From: Oerskovia turbata
GTDB taxonomy: Bacteria; Actinomycetota; Actinomycetes; Actinomycetales; Cellulomonadaceae
Length of the DNA: 64,000 bases
Direction: 5' to 3'
Assembly (NCBI RefSeq): GCF_000718325.1
Contig: NZ_JOFV01000001.1
Coordinates: 186,001 to 250,000, forward strand
Shown here: one piece after another, positions 36,087 through 63,468 of the stretch
How positions within the stretch are numbered: the first letter of the stretch is position 1
How the letters are laid out: the number at the start of each line of letters is the position of its first letter
The notes under the pieces: model-generated
The model's database searches: none
The model's input: only the letters and a program-made list of their open reading frames with translations
What the model was told of the DNA's origin: nothing
Translations under genes and position numbers: made by a program

Positions 36087-37952
<1,866 letters not shown>

Positions 37953-38042: not shown

Positions 38043-38057
38043 GGCGTCTCCGGGCCC

Positions 38058-38279
38058 CCGAGGGGGACGTGCCAAGGCCCCGAGGGTGACGCCCGTGACT
38101 GCCGAGGGTGACGTGCGTGCCTGTCGAGGGTGACGCCCTTGGCTGCCGAGGGTGACGCCACGACTCCGAGGCTGACTGGCACCCCTCGGCGGAGGCAGGT
38201 CACCCTCGGCGGTCGGGTGCGTCACCCTCGGCATTGGTCGGCGTCACCGTCGGCGGTCGGGTGCGTCACCCTCGGCGGG
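38058..38279. repeat. Intergenic inverted double array of 22-nt repeats
   Basis: Five plus-orientation cores (CCGAGGGTGACG-like) begin at 38058, 38080, 38102, 38124 and 38146, exactly 22 nt apart. A diverged copy follows at 38166. Then come minus-orientation cores (GTCACCCTCGGC) whose TCACC begins at 38200, 38222, 38244 and 38266, again 22 nt apart, plus a diverged copy near 38180. The halves face each other around 38178, so the strand could fold back. Spacer bases differ between units. Within the 521-bp gap 37953-38473 no gene is seen; the gap also holds the groEL terminator, a G-rich repeat and the iron boxes. Confidence 0.93.
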
Positions 38280-38305
38280 GTTGGGGTTGGGGTTGGGGTT
38301 GGGGG
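38277..38305 (+). repeat. (GGGGTT)n simple repeat, possible G-quadruplex
   Basis: Five runs of four or more G separated by TT, directly abutting the 22-nt repeat array. Such spacing permits a G-quadruplex. It lies about 90 bp upstream of the iron boxes. Confidence 0.85.
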
Positions 38306-38395
38306 CAGGCGGGCACGGGGGCGGTGGCGAGATGGCAGATTGTCGGCATCTGTCCGTTCCGTGGACGCCTCTTCCCAGGCGGGCAGCGTGTGTGC

Positions 38396-38430
38396 TTAGG
38401 TCTACCTCAGTGAGGGAAGGTTTACCTAAC
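38396..38430 (+). promoter_or_regulatory. Two overlapping DtxR/IdeR-type iron boxes
   Basis: TTAGGTCTACCTCAG starts at 38396. On the other strand TTAGGTAAACCTTCC covers 38415-38429. Both resemble the 19-bp DtxR/IdeR consensus TTAGGTTAGCCTAACCTAA, with the inner TAGGT...ACCT best kept. They lie 44-78 bp before the first siderophore gene, so iron-loaded regulator should shut the operon off. Confidence 0.8.
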
Positions 38431-38473
38431 TCATTCAACTAACTCGCTTCACACGCCTGGCTCTGGGGGGACC

Positions 38474-39133
38474 ATGGGACTGCCGACGATCGCCGCCTAC
38501 GACGGCCCGGCACCGCACGAGTACCCGAGCAACCGCGTGACGTGGCAGGTCGACCCTGCCCGTGCGGTGCTCCTCGTGCACGACATGCAGCAGTACTTCG
38601 TGAACGCGTTCGACCCGGCGTCGCCCGCCCTGCGGGCCGCCGTCCACAACATCTCGCGGCTCGCCGCGACGGCGCGCGAGATCGGTGTCCCGGTCGTCCT
38701 GACCGCCCAGCCACCCGCGCAGCGCCCCGCCGACCGCGGGCTGCTCACCGACTTCTGGGGTCCGGGCATCCTGGACGACGGGTCGGACGTCGTGATCGAC
38801 GAGCTCGCTCCGCAGCCGGGGGACGCCGTGCTGACCAAGTGGCGCTACGACGCGTTCGTGCGCACCGGGCTGCGGGACCTCCTGCGCGAGCAAGGACGGG
38901 ACCAGCTCGTCGTGACGGGCGTCTACGCGCACATCGGCTGCCTCGTCACGGCGTGCGACGCGTTCATGCACGACGTCCAGCCGTTCCTCGTCGGCGACGC
39001 CGTCGCGGACTTCTCGCTCGCCCACCACCGCCAGGCCCTCGCGTGGGCGGCGGACCGGTGCGCGGTCGTCGGGACGACGGACGACGTGCTGACCCGTCTC
39101 GGGGCGCACGTCCCCGCGGTGGTGGGGGCATGA
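38474..39133 (+). CDS. dhbB: Isochorismatase (2,3-dihydro-2,3-DHB forming)
   Basis: A 219-aa isochorismatase that splits isochorismate to 2,3-dihydro-2,3-dihydroxybenzoate and pyruvate. Key motifs: VLLVHDMQQYFVNAF with the catalytic Asp, VLTKWRYDAFVRTGL with the Lys, and VVTGVYAHIGCLVTACDAFM. It lacks the C-terminal aryl carrier domain of EntB and bacillibactin DhbB; that function is a separate gene at 45339. It is the first gene of the siderophore operon. The stop overlaps the next start (ATGA). Confidence 0.94.
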   Translation: MGLPTIAAYDGPAPHEYPSNRVTWQVDPARAVLLVHDMQQYFVNAFDPASPALRAAVHNISRLAATAREIGVPVVLTAQPPAQRPADRGLLTDFWGPGILDDGSDVVIDELAPQPGDAVLTKWRYDAFVRTGLRDLLREQGRDQLVVTGVYAHIGCLVTACDAFMHDVQPFLVGDAVADFSLAHHRQALAWAADRCAVVGTTDDVLTRLGAHVPAVVGA

Positions 39134-39921
39134 GCACGCGGGTCGCTCTCGTGACCGGTGCCGCGGGCGGCATCGGGGCTGCGGTCGTGGGTGCGCTCGC
39201 GGCGCAGGGCTACGTGGTCGTCGCGGGAGACCTCGACGGCGCGGTCCCGACGACGCCGCCCGGCAAGGCGACGGAGGGCGCCGTCGTCCCGGTGCGCCTC
39301 GACGTGACCGACGAGCAGGACGTCGTGCGCCTGGTCGGCTGGGTCGAGGCCGAGATCGGCCCGCTCGAGGTCCTCGTGAACGCCGCCGGTGTCCTGCACC
39401 CCGGCGTCGTGACCGAGTCCTCGCTCGCGGACTGGCAGCGCATGCTCGCGGTCAACGCGACGGGCGTCTACCTCGTCTCGCGCGAGGTCGCGCGATGTCT
39501 GTCGGAGCGCCGGCGGGGCGCGATCGTCACGGTCGCGTCGAACGCGGCAGGCGTCCCGCGCGTCGGGATGGCGGCGTACGCGGCCTCGAAGGCGGCGGCG
39601 TCGAGCCTGACCAGGTCGCTCGGTCTCGAGCTCGCGCCGTACGGGGTGCGCTGCAACGTGGTCTCGCCGGGCTCGACCCGCACGCCCATGCTCGCGGCGC
39701 TCGCCGGGTCCCCAGGGCCCGACGACGTCCCCGTCCTCGACGAGTCGGCCGAGGCCCGCGTCGTGGCCGGGGTGCCGGAGGACTTCCGGCTCGGCATCCC
39801 GCTCGGCCGGCTCGCCGAGGTGCAGGACGTGGCCGACGCGGTCGTCTTCCTCGTCTCGGGAGCGGCCCGGCACATCACGGTGCACGAGCTCGTCGTCGAC
39901 GGCGGCGCCACGCTCCGCTGA
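39130..39921 (+). CDS. dhbA: 2,3-dihydro-2,3-dihydroxybenzoate dehydrogenase
   Basis: A 263-aa short-chain dehydrogenase that oxidises dihydro-DHB to 2,3-dihydroxybenzoate with NAD. The cofactor motif is [15 protein letters not shown], then VNAAGVL, the catalytic Ser region [20 protein letters not shown] with Y-A-A-S-K, and the C-terminal LVVDGGATL. Function among many short-chain dehydrogenases is fixed by its place between isochorismatase and isochorismate synthase. Confidence 0.92.
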
Positions 39922-40011
39922 CGTACCCGTCCCCCCGCACGACCTCTCGCACGTCACCCTGCTGACGACCTCGCAGGTTCACGTATCCATCGACATCGAC
40001 GAGGACGCCAC

Positions 40012-45584: not shown

Positions 45585-45657
45585 CGCCGCGATGCCCACG
45601 CACCCCCTCCGATCCACCGCACGACCTCGCCAGACCCACCTCAAGGAGAAGCCCAGC

Positions 45658-46686: not shown

Positions 46687-49600
46687 TGACGACGCCCTCC
46701 GCCCCCGCCCTCGTGCCGTCCGGCGCCGCGCCGACGGCCTTCCCGCTCACGACCGCGCAGCTCGGCGTGATCGGCGCGCAGCTCGTGCGCCCCGGCACGA
46801 CCGCGTTCGCGGTGGGCGAGGTCGTCGAGATCACGGGCGACGTCGACACGGGTGTGCTCGCGCTCGCGGTCGAGCTGGTGGCCGGGGAGACGGAGGCGCT
46901 GCGGACGGCCTTCGTGGTGTCCGACGACGTCGCGCAGGTCGTCCACCCGGCCGGCGGTCCCGCGCTCACGAGGGCGCGTGCGGACGCCGCGACCGGTGGC
47001 GTGCGGGTCCTGGACCTGTCGGGGGTGCCCGAGGCCCGGGAGCGCGCGGCCGCTCTCGTCGAGACGGACCGGGCGCTGCCCTTCGCGCTCGACGTCCCGG
47101 GGCTGGCCCGCCAGACGATCGTCCGCCTCGACGCCACGACCGTGTGGTGGTCCCTCGTGGTGCACCACGCGATCCTCGACGCGTACGGGATCACGCTCGT
47201 CGTGCGCCGCGTCGCCGAGGTCGTCACCGCGCTCACCTCGGGTCGCGACGTGGGCCCCAGCCCGTTCGGGAAGGTCGCGGACGTCGTGGCCGAGGAGGCC
47301 CGCTACGCGGGCTCGCCCGAGCGGGAGCGGGACCGGGAGCACTGGGCCTCGCGGGTGGGCGCCCTCGACGGCGGTCCGGGGAGCTTCAGCGACGGGCCCC
47401 TCTCGGAGACGGCCGCCGGTCCGGTCCCGGCCGACGCCGTGGTGCGCGTCGCGCACGAGGCGGGGTGCGCCGTCGGGCCGCTCGAGGAGGTCGCCGCGCG
47501 GTCCGGTGCCGGGTGGCCCGACGTCGTCGCGGCCACCTTCGCGGTGCACCTCGCGCTGGTCGCGGGGCGCCGCCGCGTGGGCGTCGCGATGCCCGCCATG
47601 AACCGCATGGGGTCGGTCGCGGCGGTCGTGCCGACCATGCGCGTCAACGTCCTGCCGGTCGTGGTCGACGTCGCGCCCGCGCAGAGCGTCGACGAGCTCG
47701 TGACACAGGTGCGCGAGCGCGTGGGCGAGCTGCGCCGGCACGGGCGCTACCCGGCCGAGCAGATCGCGCGCGACGCGGGCTCGGCCGTGACCGCGGCCGA
47801 GCTCAACGTCAAGCTCTTCGACCACGACCTGCGCTTCGGCGCCGCCGTCGGCCGGCTCCGCAACGTGGCCGAGGGGCCCGTCGACGACCTCGCGGTCTCG
47901 GTCGTGCGCGTCCCCGGGCCGGACGGCGACGAGCTGCGCCTGACGGGCACCGCACCCGCACGCCTCTTCACCGCGCCCGACGTCGCCGCTCGCCTGCGCG
48001 AGCTGGCCCACCTCCTCGAGAGCGTGGGCCGTGCCGCGCCCGGTGCGCGCGTGGGGAGCCTCGGCCTCGCGCCCGCGGCGACCGAGGCCGCGATCGTGGC
48101 CGCCTCGACCGGAGCCGCGCTCCCCGGGGACGTGCCGCCCCCGCTCGCCGGGGCGCTGTTCGACCAGGCCGTGGCCCTGCGCGGGGACGCCGTGGCGCTC
48201 GTCGCGCGCGAGACCTCGACGTTCCGCGCGCTCGACGAGCGCGTCGCGCACCTCGCCGGACGGCTCGTCGCGGCCGGAGCCCGCTCCGACACGCTCGTCG
48301 CGGTCGACCTGCCGCGCGGCACCGACTACGTGGTGACGCTGCTCGCGCTGCACCGCTGCGGGGCCGCCGCGCTCCTGCTCGACGACCGGACCCCGCCCGC
48401 GCGACGCCTCGCGCTCGCCGACCGGCACGAGGCACGGCTCGTCGTCGCCGACGTCACGGGTCTGTCGCTCCACAGCGGCGACGGCTCCCTGTGGACGGGG
48501 CGCGTCGTCGTCGGGCCGCGCGGGGACGCCGCCGCCCGGGGCGAGACGCCCCTGCGGCACGCGCTCGACGTGCCCCGCGACGCGCTCGCCTACGTCCTGC
48601 ACACCTCGGGCTCCACGGGCGAGCCCAAGGCCGTCGGGATCAGCCACGGCGCGCTCGCGCAGTTCCTCGCCCATCACGCTGCGCAGGTCGTGCCGCGCGC
48701 GGGCCGGTACCCGGCCCCGGCGCAACGCGTCGCGCAGACCATGCCGCTCGTGTTCGACGGCTCGTGGGACACGCTGCTCACCCTGTTGCTCGGGCACGAG
48801 CTCCACCTGCTCGACGTCGAGCAGTACCGCGACCCCGGGACCCTCGTGGACCTCGTGGTCGAGCGCGGCATCCACCGCCTCGACCTCACGCCCACCGTCA
48901 TGTCGGCCGTCGTCGAGGCCGGGCTGTTCGCACGCGACCACTCCCTGCGGACCGTGTCCGTGGGCGGCGAGGCCTGCCCGCCCGCGCTGTGGACCACGCT
49001 GCGCGCACAGCCAGGCCTCGACGTCCTCAACCTGTACGGGCCCACCGAGTACACGGTCGACGCCGTGGGCGCGAGCGGCGCCGACGCGGACCAACCCGTG
49101 ATCGGGCGGCCGCTCAGCGCCACGGCCGCCCTGGTGCTCGACCAGCACCTGCGGCCCGTGCCCGACGGCGTGGTCGGTGAGCTCTACCTCGCCGGCCCCC
49201 AGCTCGCGCGCGGCTACCTGCGCCGCCCCGACCTCACGGCCGAACGCTTCGTCGCGAACCCGTTCGGGACGGCGGGGGAGCGCATGTACCGCACGGGCGA
49301 CCTCGCGCGCCGCGACGCCGACGGACTGCTGCACTACGTCGGTCGGCGCGACCACCAGGTCAAGATCCGCGGGTTCCGCGTCGAGCCCGGCGAGACCGAG
49401 GCCGCGCTGCTCGCGCTGCCCGACGTCGCGCAGGCGACCGTGCAGGCGCGCAGGTCCGCGCTCGGCGCGCGCCTGGTGGCGTACGTCGTGGGCCCCGGGC
49501 TGACGGGCGACGCGCTGCGCGCGGCGCTCGCGGACGTGCTGCCCGAGCACCTGGTGCCCTCGGCCGTCGTGGTGCTCGACGCGCTGCCGCTCACGACCAA

Positions 49601-50126
49601 CGGCAAGCTCGACGTCGCAGCGCTCCCGGACCCGGCCCTCCTCCCGCCGCTGGAGCCCGGCGCGCCGCTGGAGCCCGGCGCGCCGAGGGTGACGCCCTCG
49701 CCCGCCGAGGGTGACGGGATCGCCCGCCGAGGGCGACCGCACCAGGCGCCGACGGTGACCGACGTGGCCCTGGCGTTCGCCTCGGCCCTCGACAGCGGCC
49801 CCGTCCCGCCCGACGCCGACTTCTTCGCGCTCGGCGGCGACAGCATCCGCGCGATCCACGTCGTGGCACGACTGCGCGACAAGGGCTGGCGCTCGAGCGT
49901 GCAGGACGTGTTCGAGCAGCGCACCGTCGCGGGCGTCGCCGCCAGGTTGCGGCCCCTCGTCGTCACCGACGGCCCGACGGCGCAGCGCCCCTCCGGCGCC
50001 GACGCCGCGCGGGTACCGGCGACCGCGGACGCGGCAGCCCCTCTCCTCGACCTCGCGCCCGGCGACCTCGACCGCCTCGGCGCACTCCTCGGCGACCGCC
50101 GACGCACACGGAAGGCACGACCATGA
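46686..50126 (+). CDS. NRPS 1, C-A-T, DHB-accepting initiation module
   Basis: A 1146-aa one-module synthetase. The condensation domain (about 15-440) has [13 protein letters not shown] at 160 and [20 protein letters not shown], as in DhbF/EntF-type starter domains that accept DHB. The adenylation domain (about 455-975) has [35 protein letters not shown] and [10 protein letters not shown]; the pocket residues I read are D-G-D-D-S-G-L-V-D, where several acidic positions suggest a basic amino acid. A 22-nt repeat array encodes residues 1000-1028, before the carrier domain ([12 protein letters not shown], Ser near 1052). The stop overlaps the next gene by four bases. Confidence 0.92.
49683..49760 (+). 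repeat. 22-nt repeat array A in NRPS 1, A-T linker
   Basis: Four plus-orientation cores starting at 49683, 49705, 49727 and 49749, all 22 nt apart. They encode PRVT, AEGD, RRGR and PTVT in turn because the period shifts the frame by one. The RRGR copy has GGGCGAC where the others have GGGTGAC or GGTGAC. Confidence 0.93.
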
Positions 50127-53100
50127 GCTCGACCGAGGACATCGAGGCCGTCTGGCCCCTCACCGCGCTGCAGCGCGCACTGACCGCGCACGCCGGGCTC
50201 ACCGACGGGCACGACCCGTACGTGGGGCAGACCCTCGTCGAGCTGCGCGGCCCCCTCGACGGCCCTGCCCTCGAACGCAGCCTCGACGCGCTCCTCGTGG
50301 CCCACCCGAACCTGCGCGCGGGCTTCGCGGTCGACGACGACCTGGACCCGGTCCAGTTCGTCCCCAGCCAGGCCACGGCCGAGGTCGTCTGGTACGACGC
50401 GGACGTCCGGGGCCCGGTCGGGCTCTCCGGCACCGTCTCGGCGGACACCGACGACGCTCTCGGGGCCGACCGTGCCCTGCGGGTCGCGACCCGTGCGGCG
50501 GCCGAGGCCGAGCGGTCGCTCCCGTTCGACCCGGCCGACCCGCCGCTCGTGCGCTTCGGGGTCGTCGCGCTCGGCGCGGCGCACCACGTGCTGGTCGTCA
50601 CGAGCCACCACCTGGTGCTCGACGGCTGGTCGATGCCGCTGCTCGTGCGCGAGGTCGCGCGCCTCTACGGAGCCGAGCTGTCCGCCGAGGGTGACGCACC
50701 CGCCCGCCGAGGGCGACCGAGCTCGGCGCCGACGGTGACCGCCGTACCGCCGACGGTGACCGACTCACCCGCCGAGGGTGACGCCCTCGACCCCGCCCTC
50801 GACCCCGCTCGAGGCCGGTTCGTCGACCACCTCGTATGGCTGGGACGGCAGGACGCCGACGCAGCACGCACGCACTGGCGAGAGGCCCTCGCCGACGTCG
50901 AGCCGTCCCCCTGGCCCGTGTCCGCCGCGTGGACGGCGACGGACCGAACCCCCGTGGACGCGTTCGCGACCCACCGGACCCTCGCCACGACCGCCGTCGA
51001 GGCGATCCGCAGGGGAGCCCGCGCCCAGGGCGTCACGTCGGCCACGCTCGTGCGCGCCGCCTGGGGCCTGACCGTCGCGGCCCACGCCGGGTCGACCTGC
51101 GCGACCTTCGCCGTCCCGGTCGCGCTCCGCGGCCCCGACGTCGCGCACGCCGACGAGATCGTCGGGATGCTCACAGAGTCGGTCGTCGCACGCGTCGGCG
51201 CCGACGCCGCCACGACCCTCGGCGAGGTCGTCGCCGACCACTCCCGCCGGTGGAACGCCTCGTGGGAGCACCAGCACGTCGGGCTGCGCGGCATCCAGGC
51301 AGCGACGGGGTCGGAGACGCCCGTCGCGACGACGCTCGTGTCGTTCGAGCAGACGCCCGGCGCCGGCGTGGTCGCGCCGACGGTCGTCGGCCTCGACCCC
51401 GTGCACCTGCGCGTGCTCGCGACGCACGACGCCACGCACTTCCCCCTCGCGCTCGCGGTCGACGCCAGCCCCGACACGTGGGACCTCGCCCTCGACGCGC
51501 ACACGGCCGCCTTCACGACGACGGCCGCCGACGCTCTCCTCGCGACGTTCGAGCGGATCCTCCTCGCGATCGCCACGAACCCGGGCGCGCGGGTCGCGAG
51601 CCTCGACCTGGTCCCGCGGCGTCCCGACGGCGTGACCTCGGACGGCGCGACCGCCGCGGGCGCACTCGCCGGCACGGCGGCCGCCCCGGCAGCCGGTCGC
51701 GTCCCGACGAGCCCTCCCGCCCTCGTGACCGACGTCCTCGCCGGCTCGATCGCGCGCCACCCGCACGCGGGCGCGCTCGTCGTCGGGGACAGGCGGTGGA
51801 CGTTCGCCGAGCTCGACCTCGCGATCACGCGCGCCGAGCGCCGCCTCACGGCGTGCGGGGCCCGGCCGGGCGACGCGCTCGCGATCGACCTGCCGCGCGA
51901 CGAACGGATCGTGCACGTGATCCTCGCGGCCCTGCGCCGCGGCCTGGCCGTGACGCCCCTGCCGCACGGGGCGCCCGAGCGCCGCGCGCACGTCCTGCGG
52001 ATCAGCGGTGCGCGGCTCCTGTGGGACGAGTCCGGGCCGCGCTCCCTCGACGCGGCGCCCATGCCCGCCCGCAGAGCGACGGACGCACCCGGGGCGAGCA
52101 CCGCCGTCGGGCCCGACGACGCGCCTGCGGCGGCCCGGACGCCTGAGCCGAGCACCGCCGTCGGGCACGACCTGCCGCCCGCCCCCGACGCCGCGACCCT
52201 GCGCGCGTGCGTCGGCAGCATCATCTTCACGTCCGGCTCGACGGGCGAGCCCAAGGGGGTTGCCGTGGGGCAGGACGCGCTCGCGCACCTGCTGGACCGG
52301 CACCGCACCGAGCTCTACCCGCCGGGCGAGCGCCTGCGGGTCGCGCACACCGCGGCGTTCTCGTTCGACGCGCACTACGACGCGTTCCTCGCGCTCGCAG
52401 CGGGCCACGAGCTGCACGTGCTCGACGAGGACGTGTTCCTCGACCCGGTCGCGCTGCGCGACTACGCGCGCGACCAGCGCATCGACTACCTCGACTTCAC
52501 CCCGACCGTGTGGACCGCGCTGCTCGCGGGCGCCGAGTGGGCGCGTCTGCCGCGGATCTGCGTCGCGGGCGGCGAGGCGTTCGGGCCCGCGCTGTGGACG
52601 CGGATGCGGGAGCTCGCGGCGCGCACGGGCGCGCGCGTCGTCAACCTGTACGGCCCGACCGAGGCGACCGTCGACGCCCTCGCCGCGGACGTCGCGGACA
52701 CGGCAGAGCCCGTCGTCGGGCGACCCGTGGGGCGCACCCAGGCCGTGGTGCTCGACGCCGCGCTGCGCGAGGTCCCCGCCGGCACCGTGGGCGAGCTGTA
52801 CCTCGCGGGACCGCAGCTCGCCGAGGCGTACCTGGGGCGCGCGGGCCTGACCGCGAGCCGCTTCGTCGCCCGCCCCGGCGGCGCCTCGGGGGAACGCATG
52901 TACCGCACGGGAGACCTCGCGCGCCGCGCCGAGGACGGCACCCTGAGCCTGCTCGGCCGCAACGACGACCAGCTCTCGCTGCACGGGTTCCGCATCGAGC
53001 CGGGCGAGGTCGAGCAGGCGCTCGTCGCGCTCGACGGCGTGGCCGAGGCCGCGGTCGTGCTCGCCGAGCACCCGCGGTGGGGTGCGCGCCTCGTGGCGTA

Positions 53101-56100
53101 CGTGACGGGAGCGGGCCTCGACCCCGAGGCCCTGCGCGCCGCGGCCGCGGACCGCCTCGCGAGACACCTCGTGCCGACCGCGTTCGTCACCCTCGACGCC
53201 CTGCCGCTCACGCGTCACGGCAAGCTCGACCGCCGCGCGCTGCCCGCGCCCGACTGGGACGGGTCGCGGACCTCCGGGGGTGGGGCCGGTGGTACCGCGT
53301 CCGCCGGGCGGGCCGCTGCCGAGCCGACGCCCGTCGAGGCGCAGGTCCACGCGGCCGCCGCGCGCGTCCTGGGCGGCGACGGCGTGGGCCTCGACGAGAG
53401 CTTCTTCGCCGCGGGCGGTGACAGCATCGACGCGCTCCAGCTCATCGCCGCGCTGCGCCGTGAGGGGCTCGTCCTCTCGCCCGCGGACCTGTTCGCGGCG
53501 CGCACGCCGCGCGAGATGGCCAGGCGCGTCCGGCCCGACGGCGCCGCGCCCGCTGGTGGGTACGTCGCCCCGGGTGCTGGGGCAGGGGCAGGGGCAGGGG
53601 CAGGTGCGGGTACGGGTGCTGGCGCGGGGGCAGGTGCGGGGTCGGCCCGGGGCGACGGCGCCGCCGACGTGCTCGTGGCGCTGACGGACGCGCAGGCTGC
53701 CGCGTTCGACGAGCACGCGCGCGCGGTCGTGGCGGGCGCGACGCGCGTCGTCGACGTGCTGACCCTGACCCCGACCCAGCTCGGCATGGTCGCCGAGGCC
53801 GCGCGTGACGCGGTCGACGCCTACCGCACCACGACCCGGTTCACCGTGACCGGGCTGGGCGACGACGGGTCCGCGCGGGTCGCGGGTGCGGTGCAGGCGC
53901 TCGTGGCCCGCCACGCGAACCTGCGCAGCGGCGTGCTCCAGCTCGACCTGCCGGCGCCCGTCTTCTTCGTGCCCGACGCTGTCCAGGTACCGGTCGCCGA
54001 GCACGACGGCCGCGGGCTCGACCCGGTGGCGCTGGCCGCCCTGCTCGACGAGGTGGACCTCACCGAGCGTTCGCGGCTGGGTGACCTGTCGTTCGCGCCG
54101 CTCGTGGCGGGTGCGGTCGTGCGGACGGGCGAGGACGAGCACGTCCTGGTCCTCGCGATGCACCACCTGTTGACCGACGGTTGGTCGGTGCCGCTCCTGG
54201 CGCAGGACCTGCGGAGGACTCTCACGTCGGACGCAGCGGTGGGCGCGGGGGCGGATGGCGTGGCGGGTGCGGCGACGGGCGACGAGGCCTCCGTGGAGGT
54301 GGCCCGTGCGAGCGACCCGTCGTTCCGTGACTACCTGACGTGGCTGCGTGACGCGGAGTCGACCCGTGCCGAGGTCGAGGCCTTGTGGCGGGCGGAGCTC
54401 GCCGGGGTCGTGGAGCCGTCGCTGCTGGGCGCGCTGCCCGCTCCCGCGCCGACGGTGACCGACTCACCCGCCGAGGGTGACGGACCTGCCCGCCGAGGGC
54501 GACGCACCGAGACGCCGACGGTGACGTGCCGGCCCGCCGAGGGTGACGCGCGCGTCGTGACGACGCTCCCCCCGGGGACGGAAGGGCTCCGGGAGGCTGC
54601 CCGCCGCGCCGAGGTCACGCCCGCGACCGTCGTCCAGACGGCATGGGGCCTCGTCGTCGCGGCACTGACCGGGCAGCCCGAGGCCGTCGTGGGCTCGACC
54701 GTCGCGGGTCGCCCGACCGACCTGGAGGGCGCGGACCGCATCATCGGCATGTTCGTGAGCTCGTCACCGGTCCGGGTCCCGGCCGGGGCGCACGTCACCG
54801 CCGACTCGCTGCTCCAGGACGTCCAGGCGCGACAGGCTCGGCTCCTCGCCGCCCACCACGTGGGCCTTCCGTCGATCGCCCGGATCGTCGGCCACTCGCT
54901 GTTCGACACCCTCGTGGTCGTCGAGAGCTACCCGCGCGAGACGGCCGCGGTCACCGTCGGCGGTGACACGGTCACCCTCGGCACGAGTGTCGGTCACCCT
55001 CGGCGGGCCGGCATGTCACCCTCGGCGGGCGGGGGCGTCACCCTCGGCGGGTGGGGGCGTCACCCTCGGCCCGTCGACGTCGTTCCCACCGGGGGCCACG
55101 ACGCGACGCACTACCCCGTGACCGTCACGGTCCTGCCCTGTGCGGACGGCGGGCTCACGATCGAGCTCGAGGAGCGCCCCGGGGTGCTCGACCCCGCGGT
55201 CAGCGCCGTCCTCCCGGCCGCGCTCACCGCGGCGGTCGAGCACCTGGCCCGCGGCGGCGCCCTCCCGACGGCGCACGCCCTCGTCGGTGAGGTGCGCGTC
55301 CCACGCCCGGCACCCGCCGAGCCTGCACCCCGCACCGAGTCCCTACCCGCACCCCGGACCGACGCCCAGGGCGACGCCCAGGGCGACGCGAACATGCCGG
55401 TGAGCGGCGCCGTCGGGCCGCGTGACGGCCACGCGGGCGAGCGTACCGAGCGTGTCCGTGCGGAGATCGCGCGCGTCCTGGGTGACGACGTCGGCCCGAC
55501 GACCGACTTCTTCGCCGCGGGCGGCGACAGCATCAGCGCGATGCAGCTCGTCGGTGCGCTGCGAGGACGAGGGCTGGTCGTGACGGTCGGGGCGGTCTTC
55601 ACGGGCCGCACGGCGGCGGGCATCGCCCTCGCCGCGACCGAGGTCGAGCCCGCTCCCGCGCGACCGGCCGCCCGCACCGTCGAGGTCACCGAGTCGGGCG
55701 ACCTGCCGCTCACGCCCGCGCTCGCGTGGCTCCTGGAGGCCGGCGGCGACCACCGCGGGTTCGTCCAGGTGCGCGTCCAGCGCACGCCCGCCGGCCTCGC
55801 CGAGGACTCGCTGCGGGCGGCGCTCGGGGCCCTCGTGGAGGCCCACGGCGCACTGCGTCTCGCGGTGCACGACGGCGCCGCGCGTGTCCTCGACGTCGCC
55901 TCGCCCACCGTCGTGGCCGGGGCGGGCGACGTCCTGCACGTCACCGACGGCCCTCTCACCGAGGCGCTGCGTGGAGCGGCGGCGCAGGTCGACCCGGCGG
56001 CGGGCCGGGTCCTGCGCGCGGTCTGGGACCGGGGGGCTCGCGAGCTGGCCCTCGTGGCGCACCACGTCGCGGTCGACGCCGTGTCGTGGCGCATCCTCGT

Positions 56101-59100
56101 GGACGACCTGCGGACGCTCGTCGCAGGCCGTCCGTTGCCGCACGCGTCGGCGAGCCTGCGGGCCGCGGCGTCGGCCATGCACGACGAGGCCGCGCGCCGG
56201 GAGGGCGAGGTGCCCGCGTGGGTCGACGTGCACTCCGGCGAGGCCGTCTCGCTGACGGCTCGACCGCTCGACCCGGCGCTCGACACGGTGTCGAGCGCTC
56301 GCGAGGTCGTCGTGCGTCTCGGTGCCGACGACACCCGGCTCCTGCTGGGACTCGCCCCCGAGCACCGCACGGACCACGTGCTGCTCGCGGCGTTGTCGCT
56401 CGCTGCTGCCGACGTGGCGGCTGCCGGAGCGGCACCCGCCGACGCGGCATCCGACGTGGCGCCGGGCGCGGCACCTGACGTGGCGCCGGGCGCGGCGTGG
56501 GCCGGCGCGGACCTCGTGGTCGAGACCGAGGGGCACGGGCGACGCCTCGACGGCGAGGGCCCGGACCTGTCGCGCACGGTCGGCTGGTTCACGACGACCT
56601 GGCCGCTGCGCCTCGCCGCGGTGCCCGGGGCGACGGCGACGGCGCACCTGCGAGCGACGGCCCGACAGGTCGCCGCGGTCCCGGGGGACGGCCGGGCGTA
56701 CGGGTTGTTGCGTCACCTGGCGCCGGGCACGTCGGTGGTGTTGCGCGATGCCGCGGTGGCCTGCCCGCCACAGGTCCTCGTGAACTACCTGGGGCGTGAG
56801 ACGGAGAGCGTCGACGACTGGGGGAGCGTGGCCGACGCCGCGCACGTCGAGTCCACTCTCGACCTGCACGCCGACCTGCCCCTGTCTCACCCGGTCGAGC
56901 TCAACGCGTACGTGGCCGACGGCGCCGCCGGGCCCGAGCTCGTGGCGCGCTGGCTGCTGGCCCCGGCGGTGTCCGGGAGCGGCACGGCGTCACCGTCGGC
57001 GGGCGATCCGGTCACCGTCGGCGGGCCGGACGGTCACCCTCGGCGGGTGGGGGCGTCACCCTCGGCGGGGGAGTCGGTCACCCTCGGCGAGGGCGTCGGC
57101 TCGTTCGGCGAGAGGCTGGTCGAGGCGTGGGTCCGGCACCTGCGCGCGCTCGTCCGCGGGGCCGTCGCCGAGGCCCACGACGACGCCGGCTTCTCCGACG
57201 GCCGGGCGACGACGCTCCCCACGGGCGTCCCGTGGCCGCTCACCCCCGTCCAGCGAGGCATGGTCCTGCACGCCCTGGAAGCACCGGTCGACCGCTACAC
57301 GAGCGCGATCGACGTGGGGCTCGACGGCCCGCTCGACGTCGCCGCGTTGCGTGCCGCTGCGGCCGACGTCCTCGCGGCCCACCCGCAGCTGCGTCTCGCG
57401 GTTGCCGCACGGGGCCCGCAGGACGTGGGGCTTGTCGTCACGGACGTCACCGAGGTCCCGCTGCGCGAGGTCACGCTGCCCGACGACGTCGCCCACCCCG
57501 TGCGCACCGCGCGAGATGCGGCCAACGGGGGTTCCGGCGGTTCCCCGACCCCAGTTGGCCGCATCTCGCCGGACGGTGCTGGCGACGCGGCCCAGGACTC
57601 CGGGACCGGGCACCTCGACGACCCTCACCCCGACGCCGTGCGCCGAGCCCTCGACGAGATCATGGCCGACGAGCTCGACCGTCCGTTCGACCTGGCGCGC
57701 CCGCCGCTGCTGCGGCTCGTCGTCGTCCGGGTCGGCTCCCACGAGGGCGCCCGGCACCGGCTCGTCGTGACCAACCACCACGTGCTGCTCGACGGCTGGT
57801 CGGTGCCGTTCCTGGTCGACCTCCTGCTGGGGGCGTACGTGCGCCGCGTCGGTGCACCTGCGGGAGCGACGCCGTCGGGCAGCGGACCGGCGACGCACCC
57901 GACCGGGCTCGTGCCGCCCACGCCGGGCACCGCCTGGCAGCTCTCCCGGCGCCTCGCGCGACGCGACACCGGCGCGGTCGGCGTGTGGCGCGACGCCCTC
58001 GCCGGGGCGCGACCCGTGCGCGTGGCCGAGCCCGAGGACACGGGCGAGCGCCCGGCCGTCCTGCACGCGACGCCCGTGGGCCTGGGCACCCGGCTCGTCG
58101 CGGCCGCACGGGCCGCGCAGGTCACGACCGCCGACGTCGTGACCTCGGCCTGGGGGCTCGTGCTCGCCGCCCTCACGGGGGAGCGCGACGTCCTCACGGG
58201 AACGACCGTCGCCGGGCGGCCCGCGGAGATCGAGGGTGCGCACGACGTGCTCGGGATGTTCGTCAACACGGTGCCCGTGCGGATCACGGTCCGGAGGCCG
58301 GGGGACAGCACGACCTGGACCCTCGCGGACCTGGTCCGCTCGGTCCACGAGCGGCAGGCGCGCCTGCGGGACGTCGACCACGTCGGGCTCGCGGACGTGC
58401 AGCGCGCGCTCGGGGTCGGCGAGCTGTTCGACACGCTGCTCGTGGTCGAGAACTACCCGCGCGACGCCGACGCCCAGCCGGGCGCCGAGGCCGGGCTGCG
58501 GATCACCGACGTCCAGGGCGACGACCGCACGCAGTACCCGCTCGCGCTGACCGTCGACGCGTCCGAGGGGCTGAGCGTGCAGCTCGACCACCTGGCGTCG
58601 GTGCCCGCCGACCGGGCGGGCGCGGCGCTCGCGGGCGTCGTCGAGGTGCTCGGGCTGCTGGCCGACTCCCCGTCGACGCCGGTCGAGGACGTGCTGGCCG
58701 GGCTCGCCGCGCGGCACCCGGCGCTACGCGGGCGCACAGCGGCCGGGGCCCCCGCCTCCACGGCGGACGCGCCCGAGGACGCGCCCGAGGGCGCGCCCGT
58801 CGCCGTCGTGCGCGAGGTCTTCGCCGAGGCGCTGGGCGTGCGACGCGTGGCCGACGACGACAACTTCTTCGCCCTGGGCGGCGACTCGATCGTCGCGATG
58901 AAGGTCACGACGACGCTCCGCGCGCGGGGTTGGACGGTCGACCCGCGCTCGGTCTTCGCAGCACCGACCCCGGCCACGCTCGCCCTGCGGGCCCGCCCCG
59001 CCGTCCCCCCTGGCCCGGCCGCCGTGTCAGAACGAGCGAGCACTCCAGTGCTCGCTGGCTCTGACAGCTCTCCGCTCGTCTCCCCGCTCCTCGCGTTGTC

Positions 59101-59149
59101 CGCGAGCGAGCTCGGCGACCTCGACGACCTGATGAGGAACCTGACATGA
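50123..59149 (+). CDS. NRPS 2, C-A-T-C-T-E-C-T, with two A-less modules
   Basis: A 3008-aa synthetase. C1 has [10 protein letters not shown] at 161. A1 (about 530-1040) has [25 protein letters not shown] and [12 protein letters not shown]; pocket residues I read are D-A-D-D-V-G-L-V-D, probably a basic amino acid. T1 is [12 protein letters not shown] (about 1100). A Gly/Ala linker follows, then C2 ([10 protein letters not shown], 1347), T2 ([12 protein letters not shown], about 1802) with no A domain between, E ([14 protein letters not shown], 1980), C3 ([10 protein letters not shown], 2552) and T3 ([12 protein letters not shown], about 2920), again with no A domain. All His motifs are intact. 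T2 and T3 must be loaded by an A domain from another module. Four 22-nt arrays and two palindromes are embedded in frame. Confidence 0.92.
50685..50783 (+). repeat. 22-nt repeat array B in NRPS 2, C1 domain loop
   Basis: Five plus-orientation cores starting at 50685, 50707, 50729, 50750 and 50772 (one 21-nt step). They encode AEGD, RRGR, PTVT, PTVT and AEGD about 25 residues after the C1 histidine motif. Again only the RRGR copy has T to C. Confidence 0.93.
53566..53645 (+). repeat. Gly-Ala tandem linker in NRPS 2
   Basis: Repeated GGGGCA / GGTGCGG-type hexamers encode an alternating Gly-Ala stretch (about residues 1148-1175) between T1 and C2. It looks like a slippage-grown flexible linker, separate from the 22-nt family. 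Confidence 0.85.
54449..54548 (+). repeat. 22-nt repeat array C in NRPS 2, C2 domain
   Basis: Five plus-orientation cores at 54449, 54471, 54493, 54515 and 54537, all 22 nt apart, encoding PTVT, AEGD, RRGR, PTVT and AEGD about 95 residues after the C2 histidine motif. The RRGR copy again has GGGCGAC. Confidence 0.93.
54950..55070 (-). repeat. 22-nt repeat array D in NRPS 2, C2 domain, opposite orientation
   Basis: Six minus-orientation cores; TCACC begins at 54951, 54972, 54994, 55016, 55038 and 55060 (one 21-nt step). They encode VTVGG, VTLG, GHPRR, SPSAG, VTLGG and GRHPR. It sits in a loop after the VVVESYPRE strand of the C domain. No frame of this orientation gives a stop, and no T-to-C equivalent is seen. 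Confidence 0.93.
56989..57090 (-). repeat. 22-nt repeat array E in NRPS 2, E domain
   Basis: Five minus-orientation cores; TCACC begins at 56990, 57012, 57034, 57056 and 57078, exactly 22 nt apart. They encode SPSAG, VTVGG, GHPRR, SPSAG and VTLGE near the C-terminal end of the epimerisation domain. Confidence 0.93.
57511..57569. repeat. Hairpin palindrome inside the NRPS 2 C3 domain
   Basis: Perfect 16-bp inverted repeat (57511-57526 GCGAGATGCGGCCAAC with 57554-57569), extendable to 22-bp arms with one mismatch. It is read in frame as about 20 residues ([20 protein letters not shown]) in the C3 domain upstream of its histidine motif. Unrelated in sequence to the 22-nt family. Confidence 0.88.
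59025..59066. repeat. Hairpin palindrome in the NRPS 2 C-terminal tail
   Basis: Inverted repeat with 20-nt arms, 18 of 20 paired (59025-59044 with 59047-59066), read in frame as [15 protein letters not shown] between T3 and the C-terminal docking-like helix. Its base composition is less GC-rich than its surroundings. Confidence 0.82.
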
Positions 59150-62100
59150 CCACGACCGACGAGCGCACCGGCACGGCCCCCGCCGGAGGTACGGCCGCCT
59201 CCGCGACCGCCGTCCCCACGATCGCCGAGGTCCTGCCCCTTGCCCCGCTCCAGGAGGGCCTGCTCTTCCACGCCGTCTCGGAGGACACGGGCCTCGACGT
59301 CTACACGATGCAGTCGACGTACCGGTTCCCGGGCGGCGTCGACGAGCACGCGATGCAGCGCGCGTGCGAGTCGCTGCTGCGGCGGCACGCGGTCCTGCGC
59401 GCGGGGTTCGCGCACGAGCGCTTCGCGCGCCCGGTGCAGTTCGTGCCCACGGCGGTCACGGTCCCGTGGCGCGTCCACGACCTGTCCGACCTCGACCCCG
59501 CGCGGCCCGACGCGCGCGCCGACGCTCTCGACCGGCTCCAGTACGACGAGCGCCAGCGCCGCTTCGCGATGGACCGCCCGCCGCTCATCCGCTTCGTGCT
59601 CGTGCGGCTCGGCGAGCAGGGGGCCGCGCTCGTCGTGACGAACCACCACATCCTGCTCGACGGCTGGTCCGACGCGCTGCTCGTGACCGAGCTCCTGCGG
59701 CACTACGCCGCGGGCGGCGAGGACGCGAGCCTGCCGCCCGCCCCGCAGTTCCGCGACTACCTCGCGTGGGTCGCGGCGCAGGACGCGGGCGCGGCGGCGA
59801 GCGCGTGGGACGTCGCGTTGTCGGGTCTCGCGGAGGGGACGCTCGTCGCCCCGCCGGACCCGCGCCGTCGGGCCTCGATGCCCGAGGTCGTCGAGCGGGA
59901 CCTCGATCCGACCCTCTCGCTCGCGGTCCTGGCCCTGGCGCGCACGTGCGCGGTCTCGGTCAGCACGGTCTACTCGGCCGCGTGGGCGCTCGCGCTGCGC
60001 TCGGTCACGGGGAGCGACGACATCGTGTTCGGCAGCACCGTCTCGGGTCGCCCGCCTGCGCTCGCGGGCGTCGAGGACATGGTCGGGCTGTTCCTCAACA
60101 CCGTGCCCGTGCGCCTGGCGACGCGGCCTGGGGAGCCGTTCCGCGACCTGCTGCGCCGCTTCCAGTCGGAGCAGGCCGAGCTCATGGCCCACCACCACGT
60201 GAGCCTGGGCGAGCTGCAGCGCCGGGCGGGCGTCGGGACGCTGTTCGACACGCTCTACGTCATGCGCAACACGCCCGAGGACGACGCCGAGCTCGACCGG
60301 CTCAGCGCGTCCGTGGGCCTCGAGGACGTCGAGGGCGGCGACGCCACGCACTACCCGCTGACGTTCGTGGTCCACCCCGGGCAGCCGTACCGGCTGATCC
60401 TGTCGCACCGCACCGACGTCGTCGACGCGGCCCGGGCAGGCGCCCTGCTCGACCAGGTCGAGGCGGTCCTGCGCCGCGCGGTGGGTGAGCCGGGTGCACC
60501 GGTCGCCCGGGTCGCCGCGGTGCCCGACGACGTCGCGCCCCTCCTGCTTGCGCGTGGCGTCCGCGCGGTGCAGGACGTGGGCGAGGAGTCGTTGCTCGAC
60601 CTGCTGGACCGGGCCGTCGCGGCCCACCCGCAGCGCACCGCGCTGGTCCACGGCACCGACTCCGTGACGTTCGCCCGGCTCGGTGAGCGCGTCGACGGGC
60701 TTGCGCGCGCGCTGGTCGCGGCCGGTGCCGGGCCCGAGGACGTCGTGGCGCTCGCGGTGCCGCGCGGCATCGACTTCGTGGTCGCGCTGTTCGCGACCCT
60801 GCGGGCCGGGGCGGCGTACGTGCCGCTCGACGCCGCGCACCCGGCCGAACGGCTGTGCGCGATCGTCGAGGCGGCAGGGGCTTGCGCCGTGGTGCTGGAC
60901 GAGTCGTTCCGGGGTCTCGTGGCGCCGGTGCTGGCGGGCCGCACGGTGGTGAAAGCGCCCCCGGCACCCCCTGCACCGCCGACGGTGACGTACCCGCCCG
61001 TCGAGGGTGACGGACACGCCCGCCGAGGGCGACCGGACCTGCCGCCGACGGTGACCGACCCGTGGCCCGCCTACCGGCACGACCGCCTCGCGTACGTCAT
61101 GTACACGTCGGGGTCGACGGGCACCCCCAAGGGCGTGGCGATCGAGCACGGGGGCCTGGTCAACATGCTGCGCAACCACCGGGCGGAGATCTTCGAGCCG
61201 CTCGTCGCCTCCCGCCCGGCCGGGCTCCGCGCCGAGCCGGTCCGGGTAGCGCACACGGTGTCGTTCGCGTTCGACATGTCGTGGGAGGAGCTGCTGTGGC
61301 TCGTCGACGGCCACGAGGTGCACCTGCTCGACGAGGCCGTCCGACGCGACCCGCACGCCATGGCGTCGTACTGCGCAGCGGAGCGGATCGACGTCGTCAA
61401 CGTGACGCCTTCGGTGTGCTCGGCGCTCCTCGCGGAGGGCCTGCTCGACGAGGGGCGTCACCGTCCGGGCCTCGTGCTGCTGGGCGGCGAGGCCGTGGGG
61501 GCGGAGGTGTGGGACGCGATCGTCGCCACCCCGGGGACGCGTGGCTACAACCTGTACGGCCCGACCGAGTACACGATCAACACGCTCGGTGGCGGCACGG
61601 ACGAGAGCCGGCGCCCGACCGTCGGGCGTCCCATCGCCAACACGTCGGTGTACGTCCTGGACTCGGGCCTCGCGCCCGTGCCCGACGGCACGCCGGGCGA
61701 GCTGTTCGTGAGCGGGGTCGGGCTCGCCCGGGGGTATCACGGGGCGCCCGGTCTGAGCGCCGAGCGGTTCGTCGCAGACCCGTTCGGGGTGCCGGGCACG
61801 CGCATGTACCGCACGGGCGACGTGGTGCGCCGCAGGCCCGACGGGCAGCTCGACTTCCTCGGGCGCAGCGACGGCCAGGTCAAGATCCGGGGCTACCGGG
61901 TCGAGCCGGGGGAGTCGCAGGCGGTGCTGGCGCGCGACCCGCGGGTCGCGCAGTGCGCCGTGGTCGCCCGCCGGGGGGCTGGGGATGGGCACGTCCTGGT
62001 GGGCTACGTGGTGCTTGCCTCGGGCGCGGAGCCCTCCGCCGAGGGTGACACCCCCGCCCGCCGAGGGCGACGCCCCGGGGCGCCGACGGTGACCGACGTG

Positions 62101-63468
62101 CCCTCCGAGGGTGACGCGGCCCTCCTGGCCGACGTGCTGCGCACCATGCGCCGAACGGTTCCCGACCATCTGGTCCCCTCGGCCCTCGTCCCGCTCGACG
62201 AGCTGCCGCTGACGCCGCACGCCAAGCTCGACGTCCGTCGCCTCCCGGCCCCCGACCTCACGCGCGGGGGCGGGCGCGAACCCCGGACGGACCTCGAGCG
62301 CGAGCTCTGCGCGATCTTCGCCGAGGTCCTGGGCGTGGCGAGATTCGGGGCCGACGACGACTTCTACGCCGCCGGGGGGCACTCGCTCCTCGCGATGCGC
62401 GTGGTCTCGATGGTCCGCACGCGACTGGGCCGCCCGCTCAGCGTCGGCGTCCTCGTGACCGCTCCGACGGTCGAGGCGATCGTCGCGCACTGGGACGCCC
62501 CGGAGACCGACCCGTTCGCGGGCACGCTCACGCTGCGTGCGCCCTCGCCCGGGAGCGGGGCCGCGCCGCTCTTCTGCCTCGCGCCGGCAGGTGGCCTCGG
62601 GTGGTCCTTCGCGTCGCTCGTCCCGCACGTCCCGGCCGGGGCGGCGGTGTACGCGCTGCAGTCGCCGCGTCTCGCGGGGCCCGACGGCGCCCCCTCCTCG
62701 CTCGTCGACCTCGCCGAGCACTGGGTCCGGTCGGTGCGCGAGGTGGCGCCGCACGGGCCGTACCACCTGCTCGGCTACTCGTTCGGGGCCCACCTGGCTC
62801 ACCTCGTGGCGACTCGGTTGCAGGAGGCGGGCGACGTCGTCGCGAGCCTGACGATGCTCGACGCCGAGGCCGTCGTGCCCGAGGTGGGCGGCGCCGTCGG
62901 GCAAGGCGGTCACCCTCGGCGGGGGAGTGCGTCACCCTCGGCGGGGGAGTGCGTCACCCTCGGCGGGCGGGACGGTCACCCTCGGCGGGCGGGACGGTCA
63001 CCGTCGGCGGAGGATGCCGACGAGCGCGCCGAGATCGACGCCCTGCGGTCCCTGCTCGCCGCCGGCGGTGCCGACCCCGACCTGTTCGCCGCGCCCACGC
63101 GCGACGACGTCCTCGACGTCCTGGCGGATGCGCCCGGCGCGTGGGGCGACCTCGACGAGGACGGGCTCGCCGCGGTCGTCGACACCTACCTGTCCTCGTG
63201 CGACCTCATGGGCCAGGCCCGCTACACCCCGTTCCGGGGCGACCTGCTGCTGTTCACGGCGCACGAGGGCACCGACCGCCACGACCTCGCGGCCCAGCGC
63301 GACGCCTGGACCCCGCACGTGACCGGCACCGTGACCCAGCACGCGGTCCTCGCGGGCCACCACGACATGGTGTCGCCCGCGGCGATCGGCCAGCTCGGCC
63401 CGGTCCTCGCGCGACACCTGTCCCAGGCCCCCGCGACCACCCATCCCCGCACCGACGAGAGGCACTGA
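59146..63468 (+). CDS. NRPS 3, C-A-T-TE, hydroxyornithine-type termination module
   Basis: A 1440-aa terminal module. C (about 20-450) has [14 protein letters not shown] at 167. A (about 480-1020) has [34 protein letters not shown] and [14 protein letters not shown]. The pocket residues read D-M-E-N-L-G-L-I-N, the code recorded for ornithine / N5-hydroxyornithine A domains, matching the N-hydroxylase at 42983. T is [12 protein letters not shown] (Ser near 1082). The thioesterase (about 1130-1440) has the nucleophile elbow [12 protein letters not shown] (Ser near 1212) and a late His (AGHHDMVSP). It should release the finished siderophore. Three 22-nt arrays are embedded. Confidence 0.94.
60979..61056 (+). 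repeat. 22-nt repeat array F in NRPS 3, A domain before motif A3
   Basis: Four plus-orientation cores at 60979, 61001, 61023 and 61045, 22 nt apart, encoding PTVT, VEGD, RRGR and PTVT about 20 residues before the ATP-binding P-loop. The RRGR copy has GGGCGAC. Confidence 0.93.
62039..62116 (+). repeat. 22-nt repeat array G in NRPS 3, A-domain C-terminal lobe
   Basis: Four plus-orientation cores at 62039, 62061, 62083 and 62105, 22 nt apart, encoding AEGD, RRGR, PTVT and SEGD between the VGYVVLASG strand and the [14 protein letters not shown] helix. The RRGR copy has GGGCGAC. Confidence 0.93.
62909..63011 (-). repeat. 22-nt repeat array H in NRPS 3, thioesterase lid region
   Basis: Five minus-orientation cores; TCACC begins at 62910, 62932, 62954, 62976 and 62998. 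Units 1 and 2 are identical over 22 nt, and units 3 and 4 are identical over 22 nt, indicating recent tandem duplication. They encode GHPRR, SPSAG, VTLGG, GHPRR and SPSAE in the likely lid of the thioesterase. Confidence 0.94.

What the first reader, a model, noticed from the sequence alone, without database searches (positions are those of the whole stretch)
38058..63011. A 22-nt periodic repeat family confined to the siderophore region and embedded in NRPS coding sequence
Nine arrays of a 12-16-nt core (CCCGCCGAGGGTGACG or its complement) recur at a strict 22-nt period: one intergenic (38058-38279) and eight inside the three NRPS genes (from 49683, 50685, 54449, 54950, 56989, 60979, 62039, 62909). 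In-gene arrays total about 38 units of 4-6 copies each. I see no copy in the first 38 kb. Spacer bases vary while the period is kept, unlike a simple minisatellite. The period is about two helical turns, so cores would face the same side of the DNA, as with an array of binding sites. I know of no described family with this core. Function is inference.
Basis: seen in the sequence. Interest (0 to 1): 0.9.

Follow-up and report, generated by a model that had tools for sequence, protein, structure and literature searches.

The report
Phased 22-bp DNA motif arrays, Oerskovia
Bacteria of the genus Oerskovia carry a family of short DNA arrays, a fixed 12-letter motif repeated every two turns of the double helix, which sit behind genes and even, in-frame, inside them, and whose motif stays fixed while the letters between the copies drift, as would be expected if a still unknown protein binds them.

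Summary
The arrays are real. A 12-bp core, GCCGAGGGTGAC, recurs at 22 bp (sometimes 21) in nine places of the window; 40 permuted cores give none. 'Confined to the siderophore region' is wrong: the window's genome (an Oerskovia) holds 250 exact cores, and in 710 kb read nearly in full 100 of 100 lie in arrays. In a collection of 84,980 species the paired pattern is essentially confined to Oerskovia (28 of 34 stretches). Of 66 sampled arrays 49 lie outside genes or across a gene end, mostly near stop codons. Facing arrays always point inward. In-gene arrays keep the frame; sense units in the frame where the core would read TGA have CGA instead (5 of 5). Across species the core is conserved and the spacer drifts, in coding and non-coding arrays; in one species (G002) the constraint is much weaker. 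Arrays are not copies of each other; they grow and shrink locally. No RAYT transposase, Rfam, phage or plasmid match was found. Best reading: site arrays for an unidentified sequence-specific DNA-binding protein. Binding is inferred, not shown. Main rival: a self-amplifying repeat whose core is needed by the amplifying machinery.

The parts
38057..38176 (+). left arm of the intergenic composite, 6 core units at 22,22,22,22,20 nt
38199..38276 (-). right arm of the intergenic composite, 4 core units at 22 nt, facing the left arm
   Evidence: G002, G003 and G005 hold only 21-25 nt here, with a degenerate single inverted pair
49682..49759 (+). array of 4 units in NRPS gene 1, sense
50684..50782 (+). 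array of 5 units in NRPS gene 2, sense, one 21-nt step shared with O. rustica (G003)
54448..54547 (+). array of 5 units in NRPS gene 2, sense (2 units in G003 and G005, 5 in G004; 3 units = 66 nt = 22 aa)
54950..55070 (-). array of 6 units in NRPS gene 2, antisense
56989..57088 (-). array of 5 units in NRPS gene 2, antisense
60978..61055 (+). array of 4 units in NRPS gene 3, sense
62038..62115 (+). array of 4 units in NRPS gene 3, sense (4 units in G004; only remnants in G003 and G005)
62909..63008 (-). array of 5 units in NRPS gene 3, antisense
46713..50126 (+). NRPS gene 1 (condensation, AMP-binding, carrier domain); start from own gene model
50123..59149 (+). NRPS gene 2
59146..63468 (+). 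NRPS gene 3 (condensation, AMP-binding, carrier domain, thioesterase)
38004..38039 (+). hairpin after the groEL ORF (36138-37952), present in the three relatives, just upstream of the array; terminator role inferred

Best explanation
A genus-specific family of DNA-binding-site arrays. Shown: each array is a run of a 12-bp core (GCCGA[G/C]GGTGAC, usually followed by G) every 21-22 bp, about two helical turns; neighbouring cores on opposite strands always face inward, most often 5-7 bp apart; arrays lie mostly at gene 3' ends and, frame-compatible, inside genes; unit number changes locally between species; cores are kept while spacers drift. Inferred: a sequence-specific, orientation-aware DNA-binding protein occupies successive cores on one face of the helix; single cores are too weak to matter, so tandem duplication of the unit is favoured and core mutations are selected against; duplications inside genes survive only when they add whole codons (three 22-nt units, or 21-nt steps) and carry no stop. 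The identity of the protein and what the occupied arrays do are unknown; anchoring, insulating or organising the chromosome fits better than regulation of single genes.
For: Period and core: (lag 22: 11.0 identical runs per 100 kb; other lags not divisible by 3 give 0.1-1.3, except lag 44, two units, 5.1). 100 of 100 exact cores in 710 kb lie in arrays. Core against spacer divergence in orthologous NRPS arrays: G003 15/336 against 55/195, G005 14/200 against 26/84, G004 42/310 against 64/182. In one array matched unit by unit through its odd 21-nt step: 1/60 against 14/39, Fisher p 4e-6. Non-coding arrays: G003 39/464 against 87/279, G004 19/261 against 52/158, G005 15/170 against 28/106. In-gene cores lie in all frames and both orientations, so protein selection is an unlikely reason. 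Inward polarity 16 of 16 in G000 and 14 of 14 in relatives, 0 outward (the 14 differ in sequence, but some may be orthologues). G002, about as distant as G005 by flanking fourfold sites (0.192 against 0.167), has core divergence 62/227 against 14/200, as if the constraint had weakened there. In complete genome G005 the 21 multi-core loci fall 9, 8, 3, 1 in quarters from origin to terminus.
Against: No binding protein found; the one family of chromosomal binders tested, ParB (PF02195), shows one copy over the cut-off in each of 7 genomes, with or without many arrays. Many arrays are missing or degenerate in relatives, which speaks against strong selection on each. Aligning arrays lets cores pair with cores of non-orthologous units, which inflates core identity; many G003 and G004 loci were fetched because they hold intact core pairs; at one of 8 non-coding loci compared with G003 the core was no better kept than the spacer (22/58 against 15/38). 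In NRPS genes the core is only about as conserved as the coding flank (G003 0.045 against 0.054, G005 0.070 against 0.078, G004 0.135 against 0.107), and its fourfold sites only modestly more so (6/85 against 404/3723, G003). Identical spacers in different arrays are commoner than in 20 column shuffles (30 against a mean of 7.5, maximum 12), which points to some dispersal.
Confidence: 0.45

Rival explanations
1. A self-amplifying repeat (minisatellite-like). Units duplicate by slippage or template switching and occasionally move between loci; the core is conserved because the amplifying machinery needs it, not because the cell does.
For: Identical neighbouring spacers in 23 of 140 unit pairs; alternating unit types within arrays; cross-locus shared spacers above shuffles; exact-core number ranging from 10 to 250 among seven species of one genus; many arrays missing or degenerate in relatives.
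Against: Ordinary slippage copies the whole unit, yet neighbouring units differ by 0.69 of 12 in the core and 3.73 of 10 in the spacer (units were admitted with at most 2 core mismatches, which caps the first figure). Any unit length should do, yet independent loci use 21-22. The longest stretch shared by two arrays is 38 nt. Does not by itself explain inward polarity.
Confidence: 0.32
2. Transcript 3'-end elements: inward-facing cores form hairpins that terminate transcription or protect mRNA ends.
For: 21 of 30 intergenic loci with a neighbouring gene end lie within 25 bp of, or overlap, the stop codon; the commonest gap between facing cores (5-7 nt, 11 of 30) gives a 12-bp stem and short loop; the window composite folds far better than shuffles (z -9.2).
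Against: Spacers of opposite arms are not complementary beyond chance (0.536 same composite and level, n 28; 0.557 different composites). 24 of 36 intergenic loci were scored with one orientation only when arms within 60 bp were merged. 17 of 66 arrays lie inside genes, 8 of them antisense. groEL already has its own hairpin upstream of the array.
Confidence: 0.12
3. A mobile element family of REP/REPIN, MITE or Rickettsia-palindromic-element type, inserted by a transposase in trans.
For: Short, partly palindromic, often extragenic, also in-frame inside genes; one species has many more than its relatives.
Against: Y1 (RAYT) transposase in 0 of 8 genomes searched; arrays are not copies of one another; the same sites are occupied by fewer or degenerate units in relatives, so growth is local; by eye no target duplication at the groEL site.
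Confidence: 0.06
4. DNA uptake or recombination signal spread by biased uptake, like the 12-mer DUS of Neisseria (recalled).
For: A 12-mer with convergent identity at independent loci, often as inverted pairs behind genes. The comparison with DUS is recalled, not tested.
Against: DUS are single or paired (recalled); here 100 of 100 exact cores in the contigs read nearly in full are in phased arrays. Competence was not examined.
Confidence: 0.04

Closest known systems
REP elements and REPINs (PMC3116915; abstract, outline and the section on tandem REPs read)
   Same: Short, over-represented, often inverted doublets able to form hairpins, mostly extragenic, sometimes in evenly spaced tandem arrays
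   Different: No RAYT here; the unit is a non-palindromic 12-mer at 21-22 bp in arrays of 2-10; 17 of 66 sampled arrays lie inside genes
TAACTGA direct repeats of Beggiatoaceae and others (PMC4679880; abstract and outline read)
   Same: Many sets (169) of mostly 2-6 direct repeats of a fixed short motif, a binding role proposed, no mechanism of spread evident
   Different: Heptamer, mostly just upstream of start codons, phylogenetically scattered; here a 12-mer with free spacers, at gene 3' ends, genus-specific
Rickettsia palindromic elements (PMC10969869; passages read)
   Same: Repeats tolerated in-frame inside unrelated genes
   Different: RPEs are inserts of about 150 bp encoding a conserved peptide; here unit-wise arrays that encode different peptides in each frame
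Noc and SlmA binding sites (search listing and starts of abstracts only; terminus depletion of Noc sites recalled)
   Same: Scattered chromosomal sites; SlmA sites more abundant near the origin (abstract start of PMC4117426), as suggested here for G005
   Different: Single palindromes, not arrays (recalled); no extra ParB/Noc-like protein over the cut-off here
Plasmid iterons, and Tn7/Mu end sites of 22 bp (recalled)
   Same: Direct repeats about two helical turns apart bound by one protein
   Different: One or two sites per replicon or element; here dozens of chromosomal loci

Membership tests
REP/REPIN | RAYT (Y1) transposase in the genome | tested here: not met
   PF01797: 0 of 8 genomes, control rings in 5 of 14
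REP/REPIN | inverted doublets forming a hairpin | tested here: met
   inward neighbours 16 of 16 and 14 of 14, though 24 of 36 intergenic loci were scored with one orientation only
MITE | discrete copies with common ends and target duplication | tested here: not met
   longest stretch shared between any two of 66 arrays is 38 nt; by eye no duplication at the groEL site, the only site inspected for it
Rickettsia palindromic element | one conserved ORF or peptide per element | tested here: not met
   peptides differ by frame and orientation
Minisatellite / VNTR | head-to-tail units with copy number varying between relatives | tested here: met
Minisatellite / VNTR | whole unit homogenised, locus-specific unit sequence and length | tested here: not met
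   core and 21-22-nt period common to independent loci, spacers divergent
CRISPR | longer repeats with unique spacers and Cas genes | tested here: not met
   12-nt core, 10-nt spacers often duplicated; Cas genes not searched
Intrinsic terminator | hairpin at transcript 3' end | tested here: inconclusive
   position fits, spacer arms do not match each other beyond chance, no RNA data
Noc/SlmA-type chromosomal sites | depletion near the terminus | tested here: inconclusive
   G005 multi-core loci 9,8,3,1 by quarter, p 0.002-0.004, but all 40 loci merged at 20 kb p 0.13; G002 not significant
Noc/SlmA-type chromosomal sites | cognate DNA-binding protein | not testable with these tools
   no second ParB-type protein over the cut-off in 7 of 7 genomes (one weak second match in G005); other families not searched
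Known RNA family | match to an Rfam model | tested here: not met
   0 matches in window 37000-64000

The most novel reading that the evidence does not exclude
The arrays are the landing sites of an unknown chromosome-organising protein of Oerskovia (an actinobacterial counterpart of Noc/SlmA-type or insulator-type systems) that binds phased cores with polarity. Its sites thin out near the terminus and always face inward, and are kept even at the price of rewriting the linkers of core enzymes such as a glutamyl-tRNA reductase; the lineage of G002 has lost or relaxed the system, so its sites decay.
Probability: 0.17. Interest if true: 0.85.

Novelty: new variant of a known kind. Interest (0 to 1): 0.62.

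Why it matters
It is a repeat family in which DNA-level constraint on a 12-mer can be told apart from protein-level and RNA-level constraint, because the same core is kept in every reading frame, in both orientations and outside genes, while its spacers drift. If a protein binds it, a genus of Actinobacteria has a chromosome-wide binding system for which I found no description, with a natural weakening (G002) and a natural expansion (the window's species) to test it on. If it is self-amplifying, it is a clean model for how a repeat spreads through coding sequence, including a gene for tetrapyrrole synthesis, with one base changed where the frame would otherwise stop.

Tried and rejected
Siderophore-specific role: rejected, genome-wide. 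Chance heptad coding repeats: the 6 of 34 stretches outside Oerskovia are single pairs, five at the codon-compatible 21-nt spacing and one at 23, and a viral contig hit lies in a 21-nt repeat; the Oerskovia period of 22 is not a multiple of 3. RAYT: 0 of 8. Rfam: none. Plasmids and phages: no match at blastn sensitivity. RNA arms matching each other: not supported. Array copied as a unit: not supported. A conserved array beside a regulator (idea: autoregulated binder): the locus kept in G001, G004 and G000 lies between a small membrane-type protein gene and a cystathionine-beta-synthase-type gene, judged by eye from the translations, no regulator. ParB paralogue: none over the cut-off. First gene model called antisense shadows, replaced. 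Literature: searches listed no paper whose title or abstract start describes this repeat; the library is open-access PMC only, and 3 papers were opened.
Full report
WHAT IS THERE. The finding's arrays are all present. In the window, cores within two mismatches of GCCGAGGGTGAC form ten runs: two facing each other behind groEL (38057-38176 '+', 38199-38276 '-') and eight in three NRPS genes, 38 in-gene units in all. Ten chains of three or more units occur against none for each of 40 permuted cores. The NRPS genes belong to a siderophore-type cluster with isochorismatase, chorismate-binding, AMP-ligase and ornithine/lysine monooxygenase genes.

NOT CONFINED TO THE REGION. The window lies on contig C1 of a 4.03-Mb genome in 74 contigs. 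The strict pair pattern occurs 111 times there, on at least 11 contigs (list cut at 100 places), and the exact core 250 times against 2 for the reversed core. I read C1 and C6 nearly in full (710 kb, window included): 100 of 100 exact cores lie in arrays and the reversed core forms none. With 14 further stretches of up to 20 kb, 12 chosen because they hold hits and 2 where one search listed none (these two gave no array), I had 66 arrays with 305 units; spacing is 22 nt 207 times, 21 nt 29 times, 20 nt 3 times (arrays per source). Identical runs of 10 nt or more peak at lag 22: 11.0 per 100 kb in the window's genome, against 0.1-1.3 at other lags not divisible by 3 except lag 44 (5.1). The lag-22 figure is 22.6 and 35.0 in the siderophore regions of G003 and G004 (31 and 20 kb), 1.9 in G005, 0.9 in G002, and 0 in 80-kb samples of each of five other genera.

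WHO HAS IT. Contig names and lengths show the genus to be Oerskovia (G004 = O. enterophila DSM 43852, G003 = O. rustica). Exact cores per genome: 250 in the window's species, then 113, 61, 60, 33, 12 and 10 in six other species of the genus, 1 to 24 in one genome each of five other genera. Of 221 genomes of the family searched, 8 have the paired pattern: 6 of the 7 Oerskovia and two others with 2 and 1 matches. In a collection of 84,980 species the paired pattern gave 34 stretches, 28 of them Oerskovia, the other six single pairs at 21- or 23-nt spacing in Cellulomonas, Streptomyces, a Chloroflexi MAG, Albidovulum and Luteimicrobium (two); records of the window's own genome may have been left out there.

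ANATOMY. The logo is sharp over GCCGA[G/C]GGTGAC, extends to a preceding C and a following G (about 1 bit each) and is weak in the spacer. Where neighbouring cores (at most one mismatch) within 140 bp lie on opposite strands, they face inward in 16 of 16 cases in the window's genome and 14 of 14 in relatives, never outward (the 14 differ in sequence, though some may be orthologues). Gaps of 5-7 bp make up 11 of the 30. Of 66 arrays, 17 are in genes (9 sense, 8 antisense) and 49 are outside genes or across a gene end, by my own codon-model gene calls. The share depends on the sample: 16 of 37 in C1 and C6 (8 of them in the window's NRPS genes), 1 of 29 in the other stretches. Of 36 intergenic loci, 30 have a neighbouring gene end, and 21 of these lie within 25 bp of it or overlap it. 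Eight called genes end with their stop codon inside an array core, seven of them using the TGA of GGGTGAC.

INSIDE GENES. Four relatives have orthologous NRPS genes. G003, G005 and G004 carry 7, 6 and 7 runs in the stretches held, mostly at the same places with different unit numbers; G002 has one (the first NRPS of G004 was not aligned separately). The NRPS genes stay in long open frames. For example one array has 5 units against 2, a difference of 66 nt or 22 aa. In the sense frame where the core would read CGA GGG TGA, 5 of 5 units have CGA instead, all five in the window's NRPS genes, while 209 of 219 units outside genes have the T (Fisher p 7e-7); the T is also missing in 6 of 33 sense units of another frame, so the change is not unique to that frame. 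Some genes use mostly 21-nt steps instead, giving heptapeptide repeats: two ABC-transporter proteins and a glutamyl-tRNA reductase.

EVOLUTION. The intergenic array of the window is absent in G002, G003 and G005, where groEL's own hairpin is followed by 21-25 nt holding a degenerate single inverted pair. At 16 of 17 array loci of C1, sequence between the matched flanks could be read in G005 and G002 and usually shows fewer or degenerate units, sometimes none (one locus, 365793, had no match in the stretches held). At a locus compared in seven species the array ranges from none (G006, G001) through a remnant (G002) and 3 units (G005) to about nine (G004 and the window's species). No two arrays share more than 38 nt, but identical spacers in different arrays are commoner than in column shuffles (30 against a mean of 7.5, maximum 12 in 20 shuffles), so some units travel.

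CONSTRAINT ON THE CORE. Between orthologous NRPS arrays the core differs at 15/336 sites and the spacer at 55/195 (G003), 14/200 and 26/84 (G005), 42/310 and 64/182 (G004), 62/227 and 43/107 (G002). In one array that can be matched unit by unit by an odd 21-nt step, 1/60 against 14/39. In non-coding arrays with at least 24 aligned core sites: G003 39/464 against 87/279 (8 loci), G004 19/261 against 52/158 (4), G005 15/170 against 28/106 (5), G002 44/202 against 44/103 (5). Limits: the aligner pairs cores even when units are not orthologous; many G003 and G004 loci were fetched because they hold exact core pairs; at one G003 locus core and spacer differ alike (22/58, 15/38); in the NRPS genes the core is about as conserved as the coding flank and its fourfold sites only modestly more so (6/85 against 404/3723 for G003). 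Still, the same core is kept in all frames, both orientations and outside genes, which protein or RNA selection would hardly do. G002 stands out: about as far from the window's species as G005, with much weaker constraint, though its cores still differ less than its spacers.

WHAT IT IS NOT. RAYT in 0 of 8 genomes, no Rfam match, no plasmid or phage match, no long copied element. The composite folds strongly as RNA (z -9.2), but the spacers of opposite arms are no more complementary than those of different loci, so the fold owes most to the cores and the composition.

WHERE ON THE CHROMOSOME. In the complete genome of G005, with dnaA at 174 kb, 21 loci with two or more cores fall 9, 8, 3, 1 in quarters from origin to terminus (p 0.0016; 0.0037 after merging within 20 kb), all 63 loci 18, 23, 17, 5 (p 0.002), but all 40 loci after merging within 20 kb give p 0.13; G002 shows no significant trend. 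In the window's genome only four contigs could be placed: C1 and C6, rich in arrays, on the origin side, C8, with one hit, towards the terminus, C10 between. This was looked for after the fact and is suggestive only.

HOW IT PROBABLY WORKS. Shown: fixed core, free spacer, helical spacing, inward polarity, local growth, frame and stop adaptation, weaker constraint in one species. Inferred: a sequence-specific protein binds phased cores, and this holds the core fixed; tandem duplication supplies units. Not known: the protein and the benefit. The main rival is self-amplification that needs the core; it explains variable numbers and shared spacers better, but spacing and polarity worse.

KNOWN OR NEW. 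The nearest described things are REP/REPIN arrays, TAACTGA direct repeats, Rickettsia palindromic elements and chromosomal binding sites such as those of Noc and SlmA; each shares some traits and fails a defining test or could not be tested. Searches of the open literature listed no account of it.

Counts corrected: contigs 11, C1 loci 16 of 17; 'largely lost' in G002 became 'much weaker'; the in-gene share by sample and the stop-codon overlaps were added.

Noticed in passing
window 38277-38304: A perfect GGGGTT hexamer run (4.7 copies) directly abuts the intergenic composite; the three aligned relatives lack it.
   Followed up: no
window 50123-59149: The middle NRPS has one AMP-binding stretch but three carrier-domain and seven condensation stretches in Pfam, an unusual make-up.
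   Followed up: no
window 38399-38440: A conserved stretch upstream of the isochorismatase gene looks like an iron-regulator box (recalled motif; conserved in three relatives).
   Followed up: no
window 32338-32416: An 18-bp repeat of 4.4 copies in a LytR_C protein gene, unrelated to the 22-bp family.
   Followed up: no
L067 9426-9543: A six-unit array with mostly 21-nt steps inside a glutamyl-tRNA reductase gene.
   Followed up: partly
L202 and L122: G001 and G004 share 94-96% identity in the flanks of one array locus, but the intergenic stretch between differs entirely, nine units against none.
   Followed up: partly
L153 1-180: A viral contig has a 21-nt repeat containing the same 12-mer; likely a coding heptad repeat and unrelated.
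   Followed up: partly
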